From: Methanofollis tationis
GTDB lineage: Archaea; Halobacteriota; Methanomicrobia; Methanomicrobiales; Methanofollaceae
Assembly: GCF_013377755.1 (NCBI RefSeq)
Contig: NZ_JABXWR010000001.1
Coordinates: forward strand, 1,065,104-1,129,103
Reading direction: 5' to 3'
DNA length: 64,000 nucleotides
Below the pieces are notes generated by a model. It ran no database searches. It was not told the DNA's origin and saw nothing but the letters and a program-made list of their open reading frames with translations. The translations under genes and the position numbers were made by a program. Of this stretch, positions 50,405-60,764 are shown one piece after another (positions within the stretch are counted from its first letter, which is position 1; the number at the start of each line of letters is the position of its first letter).

Positions 50405-50424
50405 TCAGGAGAGATGGACTCCCC

Positions 50425-51612
50425 ATGACCCAACCCCCCCTCATGGCCGACCAGACGCTCTTCCGCGACCACAGCGTCTTCGACATCACCTACCTCCCCG
50501 AGACCTTCAACTACCGCGACACCCAGCTCACCGACCTTGCCTTCGCCCTGCGGCCGACGCTCCAGGGCGCCCGCCCCATAAACACGGTGCTCCGCGGGCC
50601 GCCCGGCACCGGGAAGACCACCGCCGTGCGCCGGATCTTCGCCGAGGTCGAGGAAGCGACCCGCGTGGCGGTGCCGGTGCTCGTCTCCTGCCAGGTCCAC
50701 CGCACGCCCTATGCGGTCTTCGGCCAGGTTTATCTCGCCCTCTTCGGCCAGGCGCCCCCGGCGTCCGGCATCCCGCTCAGGCGGCTCATGGGCCGGATCG
50801 CCCGGGAGTTGACCCGCCGGGGTGCGGTGCTCGTCGTCTGCCTGGACGATGCCGGCTACCTCCTCCCGGACAACGTGTTAAACGACCTGCTCGCCGGGAT
50901 CCTCAGGATGCCGGAGGGCTATCCCGGGACGCGGACCGGGGTGGTGCTGGTCGTCTCCGGGGTGGACGTCGACCTCGTCCGCTGCCTGGACCCGGCGACG
51001 CGCTCGGTGCTCCAGGCCTCCGAGGTCTATTTCCCCCTGTATACGCCGGGGGAGATCCGGGCGATCCTCTCTGACCGCATCCGGGCCGGGCTGTACCCCG
51101 GCGTTGTGCCGCCGGCGGCGCTCGACCTCATGGTGGAGCGGACGCACGCCTGCGGGGACCTCCGGGTGGGGCTGGAGATGGTCCGGCTGGCGGCGGTTGC
51201 GGCCGAAAAGGAAGCCCGGCGGGGGGTGACGACGGCGGACGTGCTCGCCGCGTATGCGGCCTCCCGGGACCTGCGGGCGGCACAGGCGGTCGCCTCCCTG
51301 GACGCCGGGGAGCGGGCGGTGCTGGAGGCGATCGTGGCGGCGGGCCTGGAGGACGAGGAGGAGCCGGTGATCTCCGGGCAGGTGTACGGGCTGGTCGGGG
51401 GCCGGATGCGGATGAGTTATACGGCGTTTCACGAGCGGCTGCGGAGGCTGGAACTCCTCAGGCTGGTGGACCTGGCCGTGACGAGGAGGCGGGGGCTGAC
51501 GCGGGTGATCCTGGTGCGGGAGGGGGTGGAGGAGGTGCTCCAGGTTCCGGCAGGTTCATCGGGGGTGCCGGTGAACGGTCCTGCAGGAGTGTGCGACGAT
51601 GAAAAATGTTGA
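50425..51612 (+). CDS. Orc1/Cdc6-family replication initiator-like AAA protein
   Basis: 395 residues. FRDHSVFDITYLPETFNYRD start of archaeal Orc1/Cdc6, Walker A LRGPPGTGKTTAV (about residue 60), Walker B VLVVCLDDAGYL, sensor 1 VVLVVSGVD, sensor 2 ACGDLRVGLEMVRLAA, and a C-terminal winged helix (QVYGLVGGRMRMSYTAFHER). The accessory context and GC-rich, alanine-rich make-up suggest an extra paralogue rather than the main initiator. No obvious origin-recognition boxes are seen in the 190 bases upstream. Leaderless start with TATA at 50394. A 59-residue gene overlaps its 3' end. Confidence 0.8.
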   Translation: MTQPPLMADQTLFRDHSVFDITYLPETFNYRDTQLTDLAFALRPTLQGARPINTVLRGPPGTGKTTAVRRIFAEVEEATRVAVPVLVSCQVHRTPYAVFGQVYLALFGQAPPASGIPLRRLMGRIARELTRRGAVLVVCLDDAGYLLPDNVLNDLLAGILRMPEGYPGTRTGVVLVVSGVDVDLVRCLDPATRSVLQASEVYFPLYTPGEIRAILSDRIRAGLYPGVVPPAALDLMVERTHACGDLRVGLEMVRLAAVAAEKEARRGVTTADVLAAYAASRDLRAAQAVASLDAGERAVLEAIVAAGLEDEEEPVISGQVYGLVGGRMRMSYTAFHERLRRLELLRLVDLAVTRRRGLTRVILVREGVEEVLQVPAGSSGVPVNGPAGVCDDEKC

Positions 51613-51778
51613 TATGAAGGTAGAGGGGGACAGGCTGGTGATCACGGTCGATCTCTCGCAGGAGTTCGGGGCGTCGAAGTCAGGGAAGTCGATCACGATC
51701 GCCTCGACCGATGGGAATGTGTCGGTGCCGGGGCATGAGGAGATTAAGATCGGGGTGAATGTGTACCGGAAGAAGTGA
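51599..51778 (+). CDS. Conserved small protein overlapping the Orc1/Cdc6 gene
   Basis: 59 residues: MKNVDMKVEGDRLVITVDLS, then SGKSITIASTDGN and IKIGVNVYRKK. The KVEGDxLVITVDLS...FG.SKSGKSITIAST pattern looks like a small beta-barrel family I recall from methanogen plasmid or virus-like regions, but I have no name for it. GGAG lies 9 bases before the ATG. The 14-base overlap suggests coupled translation with Orc1/Cdc6, so it may be a partner. Confidence 0.6.
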   Translation: MKNVDMKVEGDRLVITVDLSQEFGASKSGKSITIASTDGNVSVPGHEEIKIGVNVYRKK

Positions 51779-51968
51779 GGGGGCCAATTTTACGGGGCGG
51801 GGGAGCCCTCACTCGATCACCTCCGGGCGGCCGCCCCTGGGGGGACCGGTGCGCCTGATTCTGCCTTTTCCCGCATTTTGGCGATCGGCGAAATACTAAT
51901 TTTAAGAGAATTTCGAACAACCCCACCTCACCCAAAGTACTTTATAGTCCCGGATCGACCTTTTTCCC

Positions 51969-52919
51969 ATGAGCACGTTTACCAATTTCGCGATCCACCA
52001 CGAATATGCCAGCCTTGCAGCTCTGGGTGATCGGCTGGGTGAGGTCAGCGGTCTGATCGACTGGGATGCCTTCCGCCCTCTCCTTGCTGACCTCTACACC
52101 AACGCCGAGGGGCGAGGCGGCCGTCCGAACTATGACGTCGTTCTGATGATCCGGCTGCTGGTGCTTCAGCAGTGGTATGGCCTGTCTGACCCCGAACTGG
52201 AGCGTCAGGCGACCGACCGGATCTCGTTCCGTCACTTCCTGGGATATCCGGAAACCATTCCGGATCGGTCGACGGTCTGGCTGTTCCGGGAACGCTTGGC
52301 GCAAACCGGGAAGGATACCGCGATCTGGGATGAGTTCCAGCGGCAACTCGAAGTACAAGGGCTCGCCATCAAACGCGGTGTCATGCAGGACGCGACGTTC
52401 ATCACCGCCGATCCCGGGCATGCTCCTGCCGGCACGCCCCGGGGAGATCAGGCAGAGACGCGGCGCAGCCGCGACGGCACCTGGGCCAAGAAGGGCTCGA
52501 AGTCACAGTTCGGGTACAAACTTCACATCCTGCTCGACAAGGACAGTCAGCTGATCCGCCGGATTGAGACCACCACGGCGTCACTCCATGACAGCAGGAT
52601 CGATCTCTCCCGGGAAGGTGAGACGGTCTATCGCGATAAAGGCTATTTTGGGGTGAAACCGCAGGCATCTATGGACAAGACCATGCACCGGGCCGTTCGC
52701 AACCATCCCCTCTCCATCAAGGAGAACCGGCGGAACAAGGCCATCAGCAGAACACGATCGCTGGTGGAACGACCGTTTGCCGTGATCAAGCGGGTGTTCC
52801 ATGCAGGCCACCTCATGGTCACGACGGTTGCCAGAGTGCACGTCAAGAACATCTTCTCCTGCATGAATTTCAACTTCAGGCAACTTCTTACCCTCAAAGC
52901 GCAAGCTGCCGAGCGATAG
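51969..52919 (+). CDS. IS5-family transposase
   Basis: 316 residues, complete. DDE motif: D in MQDATFITADPGH, D in TVYRDKGYFGV, E in RTRSLVERPFAVIKRVF. N-terminal DUF772-like domain (YDVVLMIRLLVLQQWYGLSD, ERQATDRISFRHFLGY) is typical of IS5 (IS1031/IS427 side). The ends of the element are not certain; an imperfect inverted repeat starting AGAG near 51902 and ending CTCT near 52947 is possible. Marks the left edge of the low-GC module. Confidence 0.9.
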   Translation: MSTFTNFAIHHEYASLAALGDRLGEVSGLIDWDAFRPLLADLYTNAEGRGGRPNYDVVLMIRLLVLQQWYGLSDPELERQATDRISFRHFLGYPETIPDRSTVWLFRERLAQTGKDTAIWDEFQRQLEVQGLAIKRGVMQDATFITADPGHAPAGTPRGDQAETRRSRDGTWAKKGSKSQFGYKLHILLDKDSQLIRRIETTTASLHDSRIDLSREGETVYRDKGYFGVKPQASMDKTMHRAVRNHPLSIKENRRNKAISRTRSLVERPFAVIKRVFHAGHLMVTTVARVHVKNIFSCMNFNFRQLLTLKAQAAER

Positions 52920-53069
52920 CTCTCGAGAAAATCCAAAAAACCCTCTAAATGCAGGGGTTCAGGAAGGAAACGGCTGAACAGCGAGGGGAAGAGGGCAGTC
53001 GGGAGCGAGTATCTGATGGCAGGGAGGAGTTAATCGCAATTCTCTTAGATATGACAATTTTTAAATCAC

Positions 53070-53909
53070 TCATAAGACATCCCTCGTGTGAATTGCAAGG
53101 TAATAGTACTGTTTTCTCCCGTACTCGATCCCCTGTAAATATCGATCAGATGTGAGTTCTATCGACACTCTATCGAGCATCTGAGAGAAAACAAGAGATT
53201 TTATCTTAGTGCTGGATTTTTTTGCGTGTGTAGTGATCGGAGCGCCGGCCAGTTCCCATCTTCCAATATTGTTCCCGTAGAGATCGACAAATGTTGTATC
53301 GAACCTCTTTCTTGAAATTTTCAATTGCTCACAGACATATTCCCGGATCTTTGGAATCTCGACATATCGTTGTTTGAGGTTCCCGCTCCCGGAGAGGTTC
53401 AAGTCATCGTATGCGTTCAATAAGACCTTTGTAAAGGATTCACCGGTGCCATCAACGTCATAATAATGGTTGTTGAAGACGTTCCGTTGAAGCGATCCGA
53501 TCCTCAAGGTCCAGTCTGAGATAACGGAGAGAGCTGTTTCGTTGAAGTTGAACTCTTCATCAGAGATGAGGTCCTGGAGATCATGTAACTCGATAGGTCC
53601 GGAATTCTTCACCCCACGATAGAACGCAGCATAATACGGATATCCCATCATGAGATCATGGACAGATCGCCAGTCGTCATCTCTGACGGCCTGTACGAAC
53701 TGTCCTGTCGTCTCTGTTCTGACGTAATGACCGTCTTCCTGCGATATCAGACCCATTCGTGCCATTTCACGGAGAATTTCTTTAGATCTGTTTGCTGAAA
53801 GGGCGAAAATATCCTGAAATTGTTGGTATGATAGCTCGTGTTCGTCTTCTACGCAGAACGCCGCTTCGACGACTCTCCGAAATGTTATTGGACGCAGGCT
53901 TTTTCTCAT
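53070..53909 (-). CDS. Unknown winged-helix protein, partner of the transglycosylase-like gene
   Basis: 279 residues. A winged helix at about 15-70 (ELSYQQFQDIFALSANRSKE, REMARMGLISQEDGHYVR) is followed by about 200 residues of mixed helices and strands (DDDWRSVHDLMMGYPYYAAF; WTLRIGSLQRNVFNNHYYDV; FSQMLDRVSIELTSDRYLQG). No catalytic motif, membrane segment or signal peptide recognised. It starts in an ATGA overlap with the transglycosylase-like gene, so the two are made together and probably bind each other. Clearly lower GC than the core. Might be a DNA-targeting subunit; that is speculation. Confidence 0.7.
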   Translation of the reverse strand: MRKSLRPITFRRVVEAAFCVEDEHELSYQQFQDIFALSANRSKEILREMARMGLISQEDGHYVRTETTGQFVQAVRDDDWRSVHDLMMGYPYYAAFYRGVKNSGPIELHDLQDLISDEEFNFNETALSVISDWTLRIGSLQRNVFNNHYYDVDGTGESFTKVLLNAYDDLNLSGSGNLKQRYVEIPKIREYVCEQLKISRKRFDTTFVDLYGNNIGRWELAGAPITTHAKKSSTKIKSLVFSQMLDRVSIELTSDRYLQGIEYGRKQYYYLAIHTRDVL

Positions 53910-54934
53910 ACCAGACCTCTTTTCTTTGCTTTTGCGTAGCGGAAGGCGTCGTAAACCGCTGGATTGTGCCTCAATCGTTTCTCAAGGTAGCGCTCAACCT
54001 CGTTCTCTTCAAGGGCGACTTTCAGTTTCCGTAGTTCGTGCGTTATCATCCAGAGATTGTGCATTGCAATGAGTTTTCGCTCTGAGCGCACCTCGTTGTA
54101 GGTATGCTTGCTGCAGATCGGACATACACAGGGCAGATATAGTGTTTCAGGAATATCGGAAAATTCTATTGTCCCTTTTTCTGGCATGAAATAGAGGCGT
54201 TTTGATCCGGCTGTGATAAATGCCGATGAATCAAAGGTGTCTGCCCCCATATACACCATGAGAGGGATCATGGCTGGCCCTCCCAGGCCAAAAACATGAA
54301 GAGGCCGATCGCCGATTCGTCGCCGTACGGCATGGATGATATCTATGATCTCGTGATATCTGGAGCGTTTGGGGACACAGCCACCGATCGCAAAACCGTC
54401 AAAATTACCCTTTTTCATCAGGTAATCGATGGTGTTCACCATCATTGTGGGATCGTTCCCCTGGAGTGATGCATAGATGAGCATATCTTCACGCTCTCGG
54501 TTCTCAAGGGCAATGAGTGCATTTTTAACGGACTTCTTGACGAAATCTGCATGATTCTGGTTGTAGATGCAATCCTCCGTGAACGTTGGCAAATCCAGTG
54601 TCGCAGCAATATCGGCGCCGACCATCTCCTGAACCCGAAGTATTTTAATGGGGTCGAGAGTGATGTTGCGGCTCTTCTGCTGGAAACCTCCACTATCGAC
54701 AAAGAAAACCCCATTTTCTGAAAATTTTTTATGAAGCCCACCATTTCGCATTTTTTCATACAACGGACTGGAAAGAATGGAATACGCATTGATCATCATC
54801 GTATTCATTTCGGGAATGTTTTCCCAGTATCGGGGTGTATTCCCCTCAGCACTTTTTCCTCCGTTATGTACAGGAAAGAAGGCCGGTGTTTCAAGTTCTC
54901 GTGTGGCTGTTTGAATAATTTTGAGTTGCGTCAT
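53906..54934 (-). CDS. tRNA-guanine-transglycosylase-like protein (DpdA/TgtA5-type)
   Basis: 342 residues of the TGT barrel. Visible key residues: general base D80 in VDSGGFQ, ASLQGNDPTM, FAIGGCVPK in place of GGLAVGE, nucleophile D235 in GADTFDSSAF, and a zinc site C269-x-C271-x2-C274...H292 (CVCPIC, IAMHNLW). The N-terminus TPAFFPV is typical. There is no PUA domain, unlike archaeal tRNA enzymes (about 480-650 residues), which favours the DpdA/TgtA5 group that puts 7-deazaguanines into DNA. ATG 54934 is used; a TTG lies at 54943. First gene of a two-gene operon, divergent from a winged-helix regulator. Confidence 0.75.
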   Translation of the reverse strand: MTQLKIIQTATRELETPAFFPVHNGGKSAEGNTPRYWENIPEMNTMMINAYSILSSPLYEKMRNGGLHKKFSENGVFFVDSGGFQQKSRNITLDPIKILRVQEMVGADIAATLDLPTFTEDCIYNQNHADFVKKSVKNALIALENREREDMLIYASLQGNDPTMMVNTIDYLMKKGNFDGFAIGGCVPKRSRYHEIIDIIHAVRRRIGDRPLHVFGLGGPAMIPLMVYMGADTFDSSAFITAGSKRLYFMPEKGTIEFSDIPETLYLPCVCPICSKHTYNEVRSERKLIAMHNLWMITHELRKLKVALEENEVERYLEKRLRHNPAVYDAFRYAKAKKRGLV

Positions 54935-54947
54935 GTCATTCAATAAT

Positions 54948-54970
54948 TAGTCTACCAAATAGGTAGACTA
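54948..54970. promoter_or_regulatory. Perfect inverted repeat, candidate operator
   Basis: TAGTCTACC-AAATA-GGTAGACTA: 9-bp perfect arms with a 5-base centre. It sits between ATG 54934 (leftward) and ATG 55013 (rightward), next to the rightward TATA-like TGTATAAG (54975-54983) and over the place where the leftward TATA box should be. A dimer of the adjacent winged-helix protein is the natural ligand and would control both promoters. Confidence 0.75.
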
Positions 54971-55012
54971 CTCATATGTATAAGTAATTTTTCCTCGATA
55001 TTGAACATAGGA

Positions 55013-55315
55013 ATGGCCCAATCAATCCCCAAACACCTCCTTGAGAAATTTTCCCTGCTCTATTTCGTAAAAAAAGGTGGAAGCTTCACGCATAAAGATG
55101 CTCAAACGATACTGAGAATATCAAAGTCTTATGCTGGTCAGGTGCTTCCGATTCTTGTAAAGTCCGGGTGGATCATTTCTCATCGATTAGGTGATGACCG
55201 CCGTAAGAAGGTGTATGAGTTCAAAAATCCACATATAATCATTGAGGAGATCGGTCAGGAATTGAATCTGAAAGCTACCTTTGAAAAACATAATAAAAAG
55301 AATTTTGGGCCTTAA
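55013..55315 (+). CDS. Winged-helix regulator of the transglycosylase-like module
   Basis: 100 residues: KHLLEKFSLLYFVKKGGSFT, HKDAQTILRISKSYAGQVLP (recognition helix), LVKSGWIISHRLGDDRRKKV (wing) and a C-terminal helix (HIIIEEIGQELNLKATF). MarR-like in layout. TATA-like TGTATAAG is about 30 bases before ATG 55013. Divergent from the transglycosylase-like operon across a palindrome; an autoregulating repressor is the simplest reading. Low-GC like its neighbours. Confidence 0.75.
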   Translation: MAQSIPKHLLEKFSLLYFVKKGGSFTHKDAQTILRISKSYAGQVLPILVKSGWIISHRLGDDRRKKVYEFKNPHIIIEEIGQELNLKATFEKHNKKNFGP

Positions 55316-56459: not shown

Positions 56460-57716
56460 GATAGTGTAACGAATTTTCTGTAAAAATAATTTGGCCCTGA
56501 ATCCAACCTAGATTTGCAGAAAGGAGAAACAGGGCCATGGATCCCTTAGCGTTAATCGAAGATTATCTTTCCGATAATGAGAATGGCATGAAGACCCTCA
56601 TCACCTGGTTCCTCAACCAGGTGATGCTGCTCGAAGCCCTCCACCAGGCGGGAGCCGAGCAGTATGAACGAACCGATGCGCGGAAGGCTCACCGAAACGG
56701 CTACAAGAAGCGATCTCTGAAAACCCGATATGGAGAAACGATCCTCCAGAAACCGCAGTTCCGAGAATTTCCCTTCGAAACACAGGTATTTGGACGCTAT
56801 TCCCGGGTTGAGAAGGCTCTTGAGAATGCTATCTTTGAATCCTACCTTCAGGGAGTCTCAACCCGCCGGATCCAGGAGATTGTTGCTCATTTTGGCATCG
56901 AACAACTCTCTCCTGCTTCAGTATCCAGGATAGCAAAGGACCTCGATGAACAGGTCCATGCATTCCTTCAGAGGCCGATTGAACAGGAGATTCCCTATCT
57001 CTTTGTGGATGCTTCGTACTACAAAGTCAGAGAGGGACCACGGTACATCACCAAAGCTCTTCTGGTGATCGCCGGTGTTCGAATGGATGGCTACCGGGAA
57101 ATCCTGGGAGCTAGAATCACTGATTGTGAAAATGAGATGTTCTGGTCGGGATTGTTCGAAGACCTCAAAGAACGAGGATTGGTGGGTGTCAAGATGGTTG
57201 TCTCAGATGGTCATGCCGGGATCCAGAAGGCGGCGGAAGCCGCCTTCCTCGGCGCATCGTGGCAGATGTGCTCGGTCCATTGCACCCGGGCGGTTTTAAA
57301 GAATATTCCACGGAAACATCAGAAAGAAGTTGCTGAGTCCTTGAAGGAGGCATATGGGGACGAGGAAAGACTTCAGCAGCTTGCAGATGATCTGAACGAA
57401 CGAGGATATCGGAAAGCGGCCAATACGATCGAGAGATTCATCCCGGGACTTATGAGTTACACGGCGTTCCCGAAAGAGCACGCAAAGCGGATCCGAACGA
57501 CGAACATGATGGAAAGAGTCAACAAGGAACTGAAACGGAGAACCAAAGTTGTAGGGGCCTTTCCCAATGAAGAGTCACTCCTCAGGCTGGCAGGATCCAT
57601 CCTGATGGACATCAATGAGGAGTGGGTGACCGGCAGAAGATATTTGACGATGGAGGGGGAATGATCAAACAAGGAGACAGGGCTCAGACGAATTACAGAA
57701 GATCTGAAACACTACC
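56460..57716 (+). mobile_element. IS256-family element, copy 2
   Basis: 1257 bp, GATAGTGT to ACACTACC, as copies 1 and 3. Flanked by a perfect 8-bp target duplication GGTGCCGT (56452-56459 and 57717-57724), so this copy is a clean recent insertion. It defines the true ends of the family. Confidence 0.95.
56537..57664 (+). CDS. IS256-family (Mutator) transposase, copy 2
   Basis: 375 residues, complete DDE set as in copy 1. It differs from copy 3 by one residue (T for I at LITWFLN). Preceded by the AAAGGAG ribosome site. Intact and probably active. Confidence 0.93.
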   Translation: MDPLALIEDYLSDNENGMKTLITWFLNQVMLLEALHQAGAEQYERTDARKAHRNGYKKRSLKTRYGETILQKPQFREFPFETQVFGRYSRVEKALENAIFESYLQGVSTRRIQEIVAHFGIEQLSPASVSRIAKDLDEQVHAFLQRPIEQEIPYLFVDASYYKVREGPRYITKALLVIAGVRMDGYREILGARITDCENEMFWSGLFEDLKERGLVGVKMVVSDGHAGIQKAAEAAFLGASWQMCSVHCTRAVLKNIPRKHQKEVAESLKEAYGDEERLQQLADDLNERGYRKAANTIERFIPGLMSYTAFPKEHAKRIRTTNMMERVNKELKRRTKVVGAFPNEESLLRLAGSILMDINEEWVTGRRYLTMEGE

Positions 57717-58291
57717 GGTGCCGTTCATCGTTCCTGTCAGGAAACACGGGAAAAGGATGAAACAAGTCCTCCAGGGAACCCACTCCCGGTATGCTGAATA
57801 TCGGATGCACGGAAAACCGGTGCTGGTCCTGAAGATTGCGATTGCCGTGAAGTATGCAAAAGGAAAACGGGGTAAGCGCGGCGTTGAGAATCTGGGTTAC
57901 GTCGTGGGAAACCTCCGGTGGAATCCCCATCGGGTCCATCAGACCTATCGGTCCAGGTTCTCGATTGAATCGTCCTATCGGATGCGCAACCAGGTGAAAC
58001 CCCGTACGAGCACAAAAAACCCGGTCATCCGGTATCTCTACGCCATAATATCGTTCCTCCTCAAGAATATCTGGATCGATCTACTCTGGAAGCACTTTTC
58101 CCCCGTGAAACAGGGACCACAAACCATTGAGGTGCGCGGCTTCCGGTTCAGCTCCTTCATGTGCATAATCTGGGAGGCGATCCGCACATCGATGAGGGGT
58201 GCCAGAGCCATTCCTGTGTTAAGGTATCCTGTTTAGGAAAGGGAGCGAGAAACGCCGTTGAATGAAATGAGAGGGAGGAAGGAATTAGAGA

Positions 58292-59094
58292 AGTACTGAG
58301 GCCTTCATGCTCATCCCGTACTTGTGTTTGAGCAGGGAGAGTTCCCGCAGATCGATGGCGCACCGCTGCTCTCCCAGCTCCTTCCAGACCATCTCATCGG
58401 GCACAAGAAATGCCCCGGCAAAACGGTGTGTCGCATCCTCCTCATCGAGAGAGGGATCGACCTGGAGGAGCAGATGCCCCAGTTCATGGGCACAGTTGTA
58501 GCGCTGGCGGTCCCCGGTCATGGACGTGTTGATCGCAATCACCGGCGTTTGTTCGTCGTGATAAAACGTCAGGGCGTCAAAAGAATCAGGGGCGTCAAAG
58601 AGTCCGACCCTGATGCCGTGCTGCTCAAGCACATCCATCACGTTCTCGATCGGATCTGTGCCCAGGTCCCATGCATCCCGGACCATCCGGGCGACCGCCT
58701 CCACATCGTCAAGGGTGGACACCAGGCACGCCTCGCGGGGCGGGAGGTCCAGCCTGGCCGTGATCCCGGCGATCATCTCGACCTCCAGGTAGCGTTCAAG
58801 CCATTCGGTCACCTTCCCATGAATGATGCGTTCCTCCTTTTTCGTGAGGGATTTCCGGCAGCGATAACGGGGTTCTGAGACATCAGCCACAATCTGCCTG
58901 AAGAAAAAATCGATGTTCACGTCCAGGGCCTCGCTCAGGCGGATGAGCATCTCAGAACCCGGGATCACCACCCCTTTCTCATACTTTGAGATCGCCGTCG
59001 CACTCACGCCGATTGCAGCGCCAAGGTCCCGCTGGCTCATTCCAGCACTTCTCCTGGCCACCCGGATTCGCCCGGCAATGCTCACACCGCACAC
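58292..59094 (-). pseudogene. XRE/ImmA-IrrE gene, N-terminal part, cut by ISH3 element
   Basis: An XRE helix-turn-helix (SAGMSQRDLGAAIGVSATAI, SKYEKGVVIPGSEMLIRL) followed by an ImmA/IrrE metallopeptidase with NCAHELGHLLLQ and HRFAGAFLVPDEM. The protein should go on after KYGMSMKA but runs into the right end of the ISH3-family element and stops at 58285 after 269 residues. The C-terminal remainder is at 55475-55727. The peptidase site itself is complete, so the short form might keep activity. GTG 59094 or GTG 59085 as start. Confidence 0.8.
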
Positions 59095-59511: not shown

Positions 59512-60764
59512 GTGTAACGAATCTTCTGTAAAAATAATTTGGCCCTGAATCCAACCTAGATTTGCAGAAAGGAGAAACAGGGCCATGGATCCCTTAGCGT
59601 TAATCGAAGATTATCTTTCCGATAATGAGAATGGCATGAAGACCCTCATCATCTGGTTCCTCAACCAGGTGATGCTGCTCGAAGCCCTCCACCAGGCGGG
59701 AGCCGAGCAGTATGAACGAACCGATGCGCGGAAGGCTCACCGAAACGGCTACAAGAAGCGATCTCTGAAAACCCGATATGGAGAAACGATCCTCCAGAAA
59801 CCGCAGTTCCGAGAGTTCCCCTTCGAAACACAGGTATTTGGACGCTATTCCCGGGTTGAGAAGGCTCTTGAGAATGCTATCTTTGAATCCTACCTTCAGG
59901 GAGTCTCAACCCGCCGGATCCAGGAGATTGTTGCTCATTTTGGCATCGAACAACTCTCTCCTGCTTCAGTATCCAGGATAGCAAAGGACCTCGATGAACA
60001 GGTCCATGCATTCCTTCAGAGGCCGATTGAACAGGAGATTCCCTATCTCTTTGTGGATGCTTCGTACTACAAAGTCAGAGAGGGACCACGGTACATCACC
60101 AAAGCTCTTCTGGTGATCGCCGGTGTTCGAATGGATGGCTACCGGGAAATCCTGGGAGCTAGAATCACTGATTGTGAAAATGAGATGTTCTGGTCGGGAT
60201 TGTTCGAAGACCTCAAAGAACGAGGATTGGTGGGTGTCAAGATGGTTGTCTCAGATGGTCATGCCGGGATCCAGAAGGCGGCGGAAGCCGCCTTCCTCGG
60301 CGCATCGTGGCAGATGTGCTCGGTCCATTGCACCCGGGCGGTTTTAAAGAATATTCCACGGAAACATCAGAAAGAAGTTGCTGAGTCCTTGAAGGAGGCA
60401 TATGGGGACGAGGAAAGACTTCAGCAGCTTGCAGATGATCTGAACGAACGAGGATATCGGAAAGCGGCCAATACGATCGAGAGATTCATCCCGGGACTTA
60501 TGAGTTACACGGCGTTCCCGAAAGAGCACGCAAAGCGGATCCGAACGACGAACATGATGGAAAGAGTCAACAAGGAACTGAAACGGAGAACCAAAGTTGT
60601 AGGGGCCTTTCCCAATGAAGAGTCACTCCTCAGGCTGGCAGGATCCATCCTGATGGACATCAATGAGGAGTGGGTGACCGGCAGAAGATATTTGACGATG
60701 GAGGGGGAATGATCAAACAAGGAGACAGGGCTCAGACGAATTACAGAAGATCTGAAACACTACC
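59508..60764 (+). mobile_element. IS256-family element, copy 3
   Basis: 1257 bp, same ends as copies 1 and 2. No target duplication (left AAACGCCC, right ACATACTC); the left flank is a helicase-like N-terminus, the right a glycosyltransferase N-terminus on the opposite strand. So DNA was lost or exchanged here, probably by recombination with another copy. Confidence 0.9.
59585..60712 (+). CDS. IS256-family (Mutator) transposase, copy 3
   Basis: 375 residues, complete DDE set. Differs from copy 2 by one residue (LIIWFLN). Same AAAGGAG ribosome site before the ATG. Confidence 0.93.
   Translation: MDPLALIEDYLSDNENGMKTLIIWFLNQVMLLEALHQAGAEQYERTDARKAHRNGYKKRSLKTRYGETILQKPQFREFPFETQVFGRYSRVEKALENAIFESYLQGVSTRRIQEIVAHFGIEQLSPASVSRIAKDLDEQVHAFLQRPIEQEIPYLFVDASYYKVREGPRYITKALLVIAGVRMDGYREILGARITDCENEMFWSGLFEDLKERGLVGVKMVVSDGHAGIQKAAEAAFLGASWQMCSVHCTRAVLKNIPRKHQKEVAESLKEAYGDEERLQQLADDLNERGYRKAANTIERFIPGLMSYTAFPKEHAKRIRTTNMMERVNKELKRRTKVVGAFPNEESLLRLAGSILMDINEEWVTGRRYLTMEGE

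What the first reader, a model, noticed from the sequence alone, without database searches (positions are those of the whole stretch)
53070..55315. Compact transglycosylase-like module: TGT/DpdA-like enzyme, coupled unknown wHTH protein, divergent regulator and palindrome
The 342-residue enzyme has the TGT catalytic pair (D80, D235) and CxCxxC...H zinc site but no PUA domain, so it resembles DpdA/TgtA5 enzymes that modify DNA rather than archaeal tRNA enzymes. Its partner overlaps by ATGA and is unlike any Dpd protein I know. A small winged-helix regulator runs the other way with a perfect 9-bp inverted repeat between. The low GC and IS elements on both sides point to horizontal transfer. Known dpd clusters are large; a three-gene regulated unit would be new.
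Basis: partly seen in the sequence, partly recalled or inferred. Interest (0 to 1): 0.85.

Follow-up and report, generated by a model that had tools for sequence, protein, structure and literature searches.

The report
Remnant of archaeal DNA-marking island
What looked like a compact new DNA-modifying unit in a methane-producing archaeon is the surviving end of a large defence island, but its intact relatives show that archaeal islands of this kind always carry a second base-swapping enzyme together with a DNA-binding protein and an ATP-driven motor that nobody appears to have described, which gives a testable lead on how DNA gets marked without the usual helper protein.

Summary
In detail: a PUA-less TGT-fold enzyme (53906-54934, -), a coupled tandem-winged-helix protein (53070-53909, -), a divergent MarR-like regulator and a 9-bp palindrome. 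The enzyme is not DpdA (27.7 bits, cut-off 200); it forms its own subfamily on the tRNA-TGT side of the tree. The unit is not compact. The intact operon has a third gene, a BrxC/D-type AAA+ ATPase, of which 11 codons remain here. An IS element with about 17 near-identical copies in this genome sits where a relative (95% identical) has 26 kb holding the ATPase, restriction-type genes and a true DpdA. In 394 Halobacteriota genomes, all 13 with DpdA have the partner protein; the only two with the partner but no DpdA, this one among them, are visibly decayed. DpdB is absent from all of them, whereas bacterial islands in a small sample have either a DGQHR-family protein (DpdB or DndB-like) or a second small TGT, never both. 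Best reading: the TGT-winged helix-ATPase cassette is an obligate part of archaeal Dpd/BRIGADE-type 7-deazaguanine systems and stands in for DpdB in loading preQ0 into DNA. Here it is an orphaned remnant. The biochemical role is inferred, not shown.

The parts
53906..54934 (-). small TGT-fold enzyme (sTGT), 342 aa, no PUA domain, catalytic Asp pair and zinc site intact
   Evidence: PF01702 140.5 bits; TIGR00432 209 bits, below cut-off 350; DpdA NF041059 27.7 bits; residues; tree
53070..53909 (-). partner protein, 279 aa, tandem winged-helix fold, overlaps the sTGT stop codon by ATGA
   Evidence: no family match; AlphaFold2 mean pLDDT 82; best folds are tandem winged-helix proteins such as the SelB C-terminal domain, E 6.8e-4; found in 15 of 394 genomes
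53041..53073 (-). first 11 codons of the lost third gene, a BrxC/D-type AAA+ ATPase of 393 aa in relatives
   Evidence: tblastn of L027 ATPase and end of blastn homology at 53043; no other copy in the genome
51906..53045 (+). IS element with a 316-aa transposase (51969-52919), at the junction of the 26-kb deletion
   Evidence: about 17 near-identical copies in the genome; junction against G136
54948..54970 (.). operator-like palindrome TAGTCTACC-N5-GGTAGACTA, just downstream of a TATA-like box at 54975-54984 (- strand)
   Evidence: conserved at the same place in G136, G218, G228 (exact 7-bp half sites) and G248 (one mismatch)
55013..55315 (+). divergent small winged-helix (MarR-like) regulator, 100 aa
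   Evidence: MarR PF01047 19.6 bits, below cut-off 24.6; divergent homologues beside the operon in G136, G218, G228
50423..51779 (+). far flank of the ancestral island: Orc1/Cdc6-like gene (50425-51612) and a small gene, 90% identical to the far side of the island in G136

Best explanation
The locus is the surviving promoter-proximal end of an archaeal Dpd-type (7-deazaguanine-in-DNA) restriction-modification island. The intact cassette is an operon of three genes: a PUA-less TGT, a tandem-winged-helix protein and a TnsC/Orc-like AAA+ ATPase. It accompanies DpdA in every DpdA-bearing Halobacteriota genome sampled. Proposed mechanism (inferred): the winged-helix protein and the ATPase bind and distort or open duplex DNA; the small TGT, alone or paired with DpdA, exchanges guanine for preQ0; DpdC domains turn it into the amide; helicase and nuclease genes of the island destroy unmarked DNA. 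The cassette would do the job of DpdB, which these islands lack. The MarR-like repressor holds the operon down through the palindrome next to the TATA box. In this strain an IS-associated deletion removed 26 kb (ATPase from codon 12, restriction-type genes, DpdA), leaving an orphan pair that probably no longer marks DNA. Shown: structure, decay, co-occurrence, absence of DpdB. Inferred: base exchange on DNA, replacement of DpdB, repression. My sub-confidences: remnant of an island 0.95; obligate companion of DpdA in these archaea 0.9; acts in DNA modification 0.7; stands in for DpdB 0.4.
For: Decay: homology to G136 ends at 53043, 11 codons into the ATPase, and resumes at 51779 on the other side of the IS, 26.2 kb further on in G136; the IS has about 17 near-identical copies; no ATPase and no DpdA elsewhere in G000. 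Cassette: ATPase in all 46 non-redundant sTGT loci; DpdA in 38 within the fetched flank and 15-22 kb away in the four methanogen relatives. Obligate link: 13 of 13 DpdA genomes have the partner; 2 of 381 genomes without DpdA do, and both are decayed (Fisher p about 1e-22, not corrected for relatedness). preQ0 synthesis or transport genes in 30 of 46 loci. Haloarchaeal DpdA is fused or adjacent to DpdC-like DUF6884. DpdB absent from all archaeal genomes and plasmids tested. In 11 bacterial islands, 8 have a DGQHR-family protein and no second TGT, 3 have a second small TGT and no DGQHR. Catalytic and zinc residues intact. ATPase: PF10923 53.2 bits, Walker motifs invariant, TnsC and Cdc6 among its best folds. 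Operator conserved. Window against G136: Ka/Ks 0.10 (sTGT) and 0.07 (partner).
Against: No biochemical or nucleoside data exist for these loci here. sTGT branches with tRNA-type TGTs, and its pocket looks preQ0-like as in arcTGT, so a tRNA substrate is not excluded. DpdA in the same islands keeps its own catalytic residues, so why two enzymes are needed is not explained. The contrast between DpdB and a second TGT in bacteria rests on 11 plasmid islands, and the second TGT of Paenibacillus is not of the same subfamily. The partner is not detectably related to DpdG. Fold matches for the partner and the ATPase are weak (TM about 0.3 or below).
Confidence: 0.65

Rival explanations
1. Autonomous compact three-gene DNA modification unit: TGT plus winged-helix protein under a divergent regulator, working without other genes.
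For: Real gene overlap, regulator and palindrome; both genes were under purifying selection until recently.
Against: The third gene of the operon is truncated at an IS end. Every intact relative has the ATPase, and all intact relatives in the genome survey have DpdA. No other genome in the sample keeps only these genes intact; the other DpdA-less one (G028) has lost most of sTGT.
Confidence: 0.03
2. sTGT is a second tRNA-modifying TGT; the island uses it to mark or remodel tRNA (for example as a translational response) while DpdA alone handles DNA.
For: Tree position on the tRNA-TGT side; best PDB match is archaeosine TGT; zinc site and N-terminal ETPxxFPV motif as in tRNA TGTs.
Against: No PUA domain; the host has a complete arcTGT already; strict linkage to DpdA islands and to a BrxC/D-type ATPase and a winged-helix protein, which fit DNA better.
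Confidence: 0.15
3. The cassette is the sensing or restriction arm: sTGT reads, removes or exchanges 7-deazaguanine (or guanine) in DNA so that unmarked DNA is recognised, while DpdA alone writes the mark.
For: The ATPase is of the BrxC/D and TnsC/Orc type and is homologous to the N-terminal part of the large ATPase in the DpdH position.
Against: TGT chemistry is base exchange with both Asp conserved, not excision; DpdB, otherwise needed for writing (literature), is the component that is missing.
Confidence: 0.12

Closest known systems
Dpd (7-deazapurine in DNA) islands, dpdA-dpdK
   Same: Relatives of the window locus carry a true DpdA, DpdC-like DUF6884, DpdJ-like helicase parts, a DpdH-position ATPase, and preQ0 synthesis or transport genes.
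   Different: No DpdB; an extra PUA-less TGT in an operon with a tandem-winged-helix protein and a BrxC/D-type ATPase; archaeal.
BRIGADE (Bell et al. 2025 preprint, PMC12458937)
   Same: Haloarchaeal Dpd-like systems with a 7-deazaguanine gene cluster and PLD or PD-(D/E)XK nucleases; the haloarchaeal loci here are very likely the same systems.
   Different: Reported only from halophilic archaea and with no TGT named in the main text; here the cassette and relatives in the window's own order (a methanogen) are described. The two-helicase criterion was not tested.
BREX-related capture (BRC) systems (PMC12839542)
   Same: TGT with BREX-type ATPases; the authors also propose that an NTPase stands in for DpdB.
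   Different: BRC is defined by PglZ, DUF6079, DUF4007 and HerA/FtsK; none was recognised among the neighbours scanned here, though not every neighbour was scanned.
Archaeosine TGT (arcTGT, TgtA)
   Same: Best relative with known structure (1iq8, E 1.8e-43); same catalytic and zinc residues.
   Different: No C-terminal PUA region; 209 bits against cut-off 350; separate branch; the genome has its own arcTGT.
DpdA / phage DpdA and DpdA2
   Same: TGT fold, catalytic Asp pair, DNA-modification islands.
   Different: 27.7 bits to the DpdA model; outside the DpdA clade, grouping with it rejected weakly (p-AU 0.03); keeps the N-terminal ETPxxFPV motif that DpdA lacks. DpdA2 was not compared by sequence.

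Membership tests
DpdA | NCBIfam NF041059 score over 200 bits | tested here: not met
   27.7 bits; true DpdAs of relatives score 303-334
DpdA | Falls inside the DpdA clade | tested here: not met
   DpdA clade 100/100, sTGT clade 99/94 outside it
arcTGT (TgtA) | TIGR00432 score over 350 bits and C-terminal PUA region | tested here: not met
   209 bits, match stops at model position 345 of 441
TGT superfamily | PF01702 over cut-off, catalytic Asp pair, CxCxxC...H zinc site | tested here: met
   140.5 bits against 26.3; residues
Dpd system (this strain) | DpdA present in the genome | tested here: not met
   no match in G000
Dpd-type system (intact relatives) | DpdA present | tested here: met
   13 genomes over cut-off, all with the partner protein
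Dpd-type system (intact relatives) | DpdB present | tested here: not met
   no NF041060 match over cut-off in 15 archaeal genomes or 8 archaeal plasmids
Dpd-type system (intact relatives) | DpdC present | tested here: met
   DUF6884/DpdC domain fused or adjacent in haloarchaea; weak DpdC-like C-terminus of methanogen DpdA, E 2e-7
Dpd-type system (intact relatives) | Restriction arm (DpdJ, DpdH, PLD or other nuclease) | tested here: inconclusive
   DpdJ-like 88 bits, below cut-off 800; Orc-like ATPase in DpdH position; PD-(D/E)XK and PLD neighbours
BRIGADE | Two YprA-family helicases with a 7-deazaguanine gene cluster | not tested
   helicases seen in neighbourhoods but not placed in the YprA tree
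BRC | PglZ, DUF6079, DUF4007, HerA/FtsK | tested here: inconclusive
   not recognised among the neighbours scanned; not all neighbours scanned
BrxC/BrxD ATPase family (third gene) | PF10923 over cut-off | tested here: met
   53.2 bits against 22.2

The most novel reading that the evidence does not exclude
DpdB-independent 7-deazaguanine DNA modification uses two TGT-fold enzymes: DpdA plus a second enzyme related to tRNA TGTs, loaded by a winged-helix protein and a TnsC/Orc-like AAA+ ATPase. This would be a second way of delivering DNA to a base-exchange enzyme, general in archaeal islands and recurring in some bacteria with helicases or NTPases in place of the archaeal pair.
Probability: 0.4. 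Interest if true: 0.78.

Novelty: new variant of a known kind. Interest (0 to 1): 0.6.

Why it matters
The role of DpdB is unclear because some clusters do without it (stated in PMC12839542, citing earlier work). The archaeal islands without DpdB all carry this three-gene cassette, which turns an open question into a knock-out experiment. It also shows that a TGT in a defence island need not be DpdA. A practical hook: Hutinet et al. (PMC6884629) point to a host DpdA on Haloarcula vallismortis contig AOLQ01000002 to explain modified DNA in halovirus HVTV-1, and that contig carries the full cassette (L049/L033) next to DpdA, so the system may already have left a measured chemical trace.

Tried and rejected
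Homology of the partner to DpdG (which pairs with DpdH): profile comparisons gave probabilities of about 2% or less, dropped. The partner by sequence against the PDB and Pfam: nothing significant. Viral contigs and phages as carriers: no relative of enzyme or partner found in IMG/VR, no partner in phages, only distant TGTs in phages. Cyanobacterial small TGTs as orthologues: they look close by BLAST, but holding them with sTGT as one clade is rejected (p-AU 0.025), so I treat them as parallel subfamilies. Paenibacillus and Deinococcus taeanensis small TGTs are too divergent to place. A relocated copy of the ATPase in this genome: none. A bacterial-phylum genome survey was not possible because the search centre must be a genome handle. 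In some searches the row arcTGT_L001 is a wrong frame and was replaced before the trees. The Ka/Ks printed for the regulator compares frames out of register and is void.

Full report
Observation. All the elements described are there: a 342-aa TGT-fold enzyme at 53906-54934 (-), a 279-aa partner at 53070-53909 (-) joined by an ATGA overlap, a 100-aa MarR-like regulator at 55013-55315 (+), and a perfect 9-bp inverted repeat at 54948-54970. The enzyme has both catalytic Asp, the zinc ligands and no PUA region. The local GC is about 45% against about 64%. The palindrome alone is only moderately unlikely by chance (37 of 5000 shuffles), but its half sites TAGTCTA-N9-TAGACTA recur at the same position upstream of the enzyme gene in G136, G218 and G228, and with one mismatch in G248, right after a TATA-like box. 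I accept it as an operator for the conserved divergent regulator; repression is inferred.

What the enzyme is. It scores 209 bits to the archaeosine TGT model (cut-off 350) and 27.7 bits to DpdA (cut-off 200). In the tree DpdA is one clade, with the archaeal DpdAs inside it, and the window's enzyme and its relatives are another clade on the side of arcTGT and bacterial TGT. Holding it with DpdA is rejected weakly (p-AU 0.03), and holding it with arcTGT alone is rejected too (0.019). It is therefore a separate small-TGT subfamily (sTGT). The genome also has its own full arcTGT and QueC, so preQ0 should be available.

The operon has three structural genes, and this strain has lost one. Relatives of the partner occur in 15 of 394 Halobacteriota genomes and in 32 loci of a species-level collection, some of them the same records. 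In every intact one the order is sTGT, partner, then a 385-400-aa ATPase; in 46 non-redundant loci with sTGT the ATPase is there in 46. It belongs to PF10923, BrxC/BrxD, with invariant Walker motifs, and its predicted fold is nearest to TnsC and Cdc6-type AAA+ proteins, though weakly. In the window, homology to the close relative G136 stops at 53043, 11 codons into that gene. There an IS begins (51906-53045) that has about 17 near-identical copies in this genome. On the other side of the IS, homology to G136 resumes at 51779 with the Orc1/Cdc6-like flank, which in G136 lies 26.2 kb away. The 26 kb missing here hold the ATPase, restriction-type genes and DpdA. The genome has no other copy of the ATPase or of DpdA. 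Loss here, rather than gain in G136, follows from the truncated third gene, which is conserved from methanogens to haloarchaea. Ka/Ks of 0.10 and 0.07 against G136 shows that both remaining genes were under purifying selection until recently.

The cassette belongs to Dpd-type islands. DpdA over the family cut-off occurs in 13 of the 394 genomes, and all 13 have the partner. Of 381 genomes without DpdA, two have the partner: this one, and G028, which has lost all but the last 51 residues of sTGT. Fisher p is about 1e-22 without correction for relatedness. The four methanogen-order relatives have DpdA 15-22 kb from the cassette; haloarchaea mostly have it next door. preQ0 synthesis or transport genes lie within the fetched flank in 30 of 46 loci, DpdC-like DUF6884 is fused to or beside DpdA, and PLD or PD-(D/E)XK nucleases and helicases are near. 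Pairwise distances of sTGT and ATPase correlate at 0.93, and of sTGT and DpdA at 0.80, over 35 loci, as expected if they travel together.

DpdB is missing. No archaeal genome or plasmid tested has DpdB over its cut-off. Among 11 bacterial plasmid islands with DpdA, eight have a DGQHR-family protein (DpdB, or the related proteins of Scytonema and Allocoleopsis) and no second TGT; three (Nostoc, Picosynechococcus, Paenibacillus) have a second small TGT and no DGQHR protein. The sample is small and the second TGTs of bacteria are not one clade with sTGT, but the pattern suggests that a second TGT with an ATP-dependent DNA-acting partner can replace DpdB.

Mechanism proposed. Partner (tandem winged helices, AlphaFold2 pLDDT 82; SelB-like tandem winged-helix folds at weak TM) and ATPase bind and remodel duplex DNA. 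sTGT, alone or with DpdA (TGTs act as dimers, as noted in PMC6884629), swaps guanine for preQ0, and DpdC makes the amide. Everything beyond the fold assignments is inference. The main rival is a tRNA substrate for sTGT.

Known systems. Haloarchaeal loci of this kind are very likely the BRIGADE systems of Bell et al. (PMC12458937), whose main text does not name a TGT; supplementary files could not be read. The Dpd census that I could read was bacterial (PMC11888242). BRC systems (PMC12839542) also join a TGT to BREX-type NTPases, and its authors likewise suggest an NTPase in place of DpdB, but their defining genes were not recognised here. The cassette as an obligate archaeal companion of DpdA was not found in the papers searched; the literature available is open-access only. 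Verdict: the window locus itself is an ordinary piece of decay, while the family behind it is a new variant of a known kind.

Noticed in passing
L049 / L033 (Haloarcula vallismortis AOLQ01000002): The contig that Hutinet et al. 2019 cite for a 'host DpdA' possibly modifying halovirus HVTV-1 DNA carries DpdA-DpdC, the sTGT cassette and FolE/QueC/QueD/QueE together.
   Followed up: partly
L149:12789-18450, L151:3832-9403, L163:9218-14861, L164, L162: Cyanobacterial and Deinococcus small TGTs sit between or beside helicase genes, often overlapping; in Nostoc sp. MS1 and Deinococcus ficus/gobiensis no DpdA is near, so helicase-TGT cassettes may stand alone.
   Followed up: partly
L150:18040-22843 and L159:3877-8478: Paenibacillus and Deinococcus taeanensis have a parallel three-gene set: divergent small TGT, a protein of about 245 aa and a P-loop NTPase or unnamed protein of about 1000 aa.
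   Followed up: partly
L026:7923-12622: A Haladaptatus plasmid encodes two long TGTs (about 655 and 674 aa) near TBP and TFIIB genes; in the tree they are the nearest group to sTGT.
   Followed up: no
L034:9303-11508: A haloarchaeal genome (G028) keeps partner and ATPase but only the last 51 residues of sTGT, and has no DpdA: a second independent decay of the island.
   Followed up: yes
L027:227-6637 (-): G136 has a 2136-aa Druantia DruE2-like helicase directly upstream of its dpd-like island.
   Followed up: no
window 56537-57664 and 59585-60712: Two nearly identical transposase-like ORFs (375 aa) bracket an HTH protein with a metalloprotease-like domain at 58285-59094.
   Followed up: no
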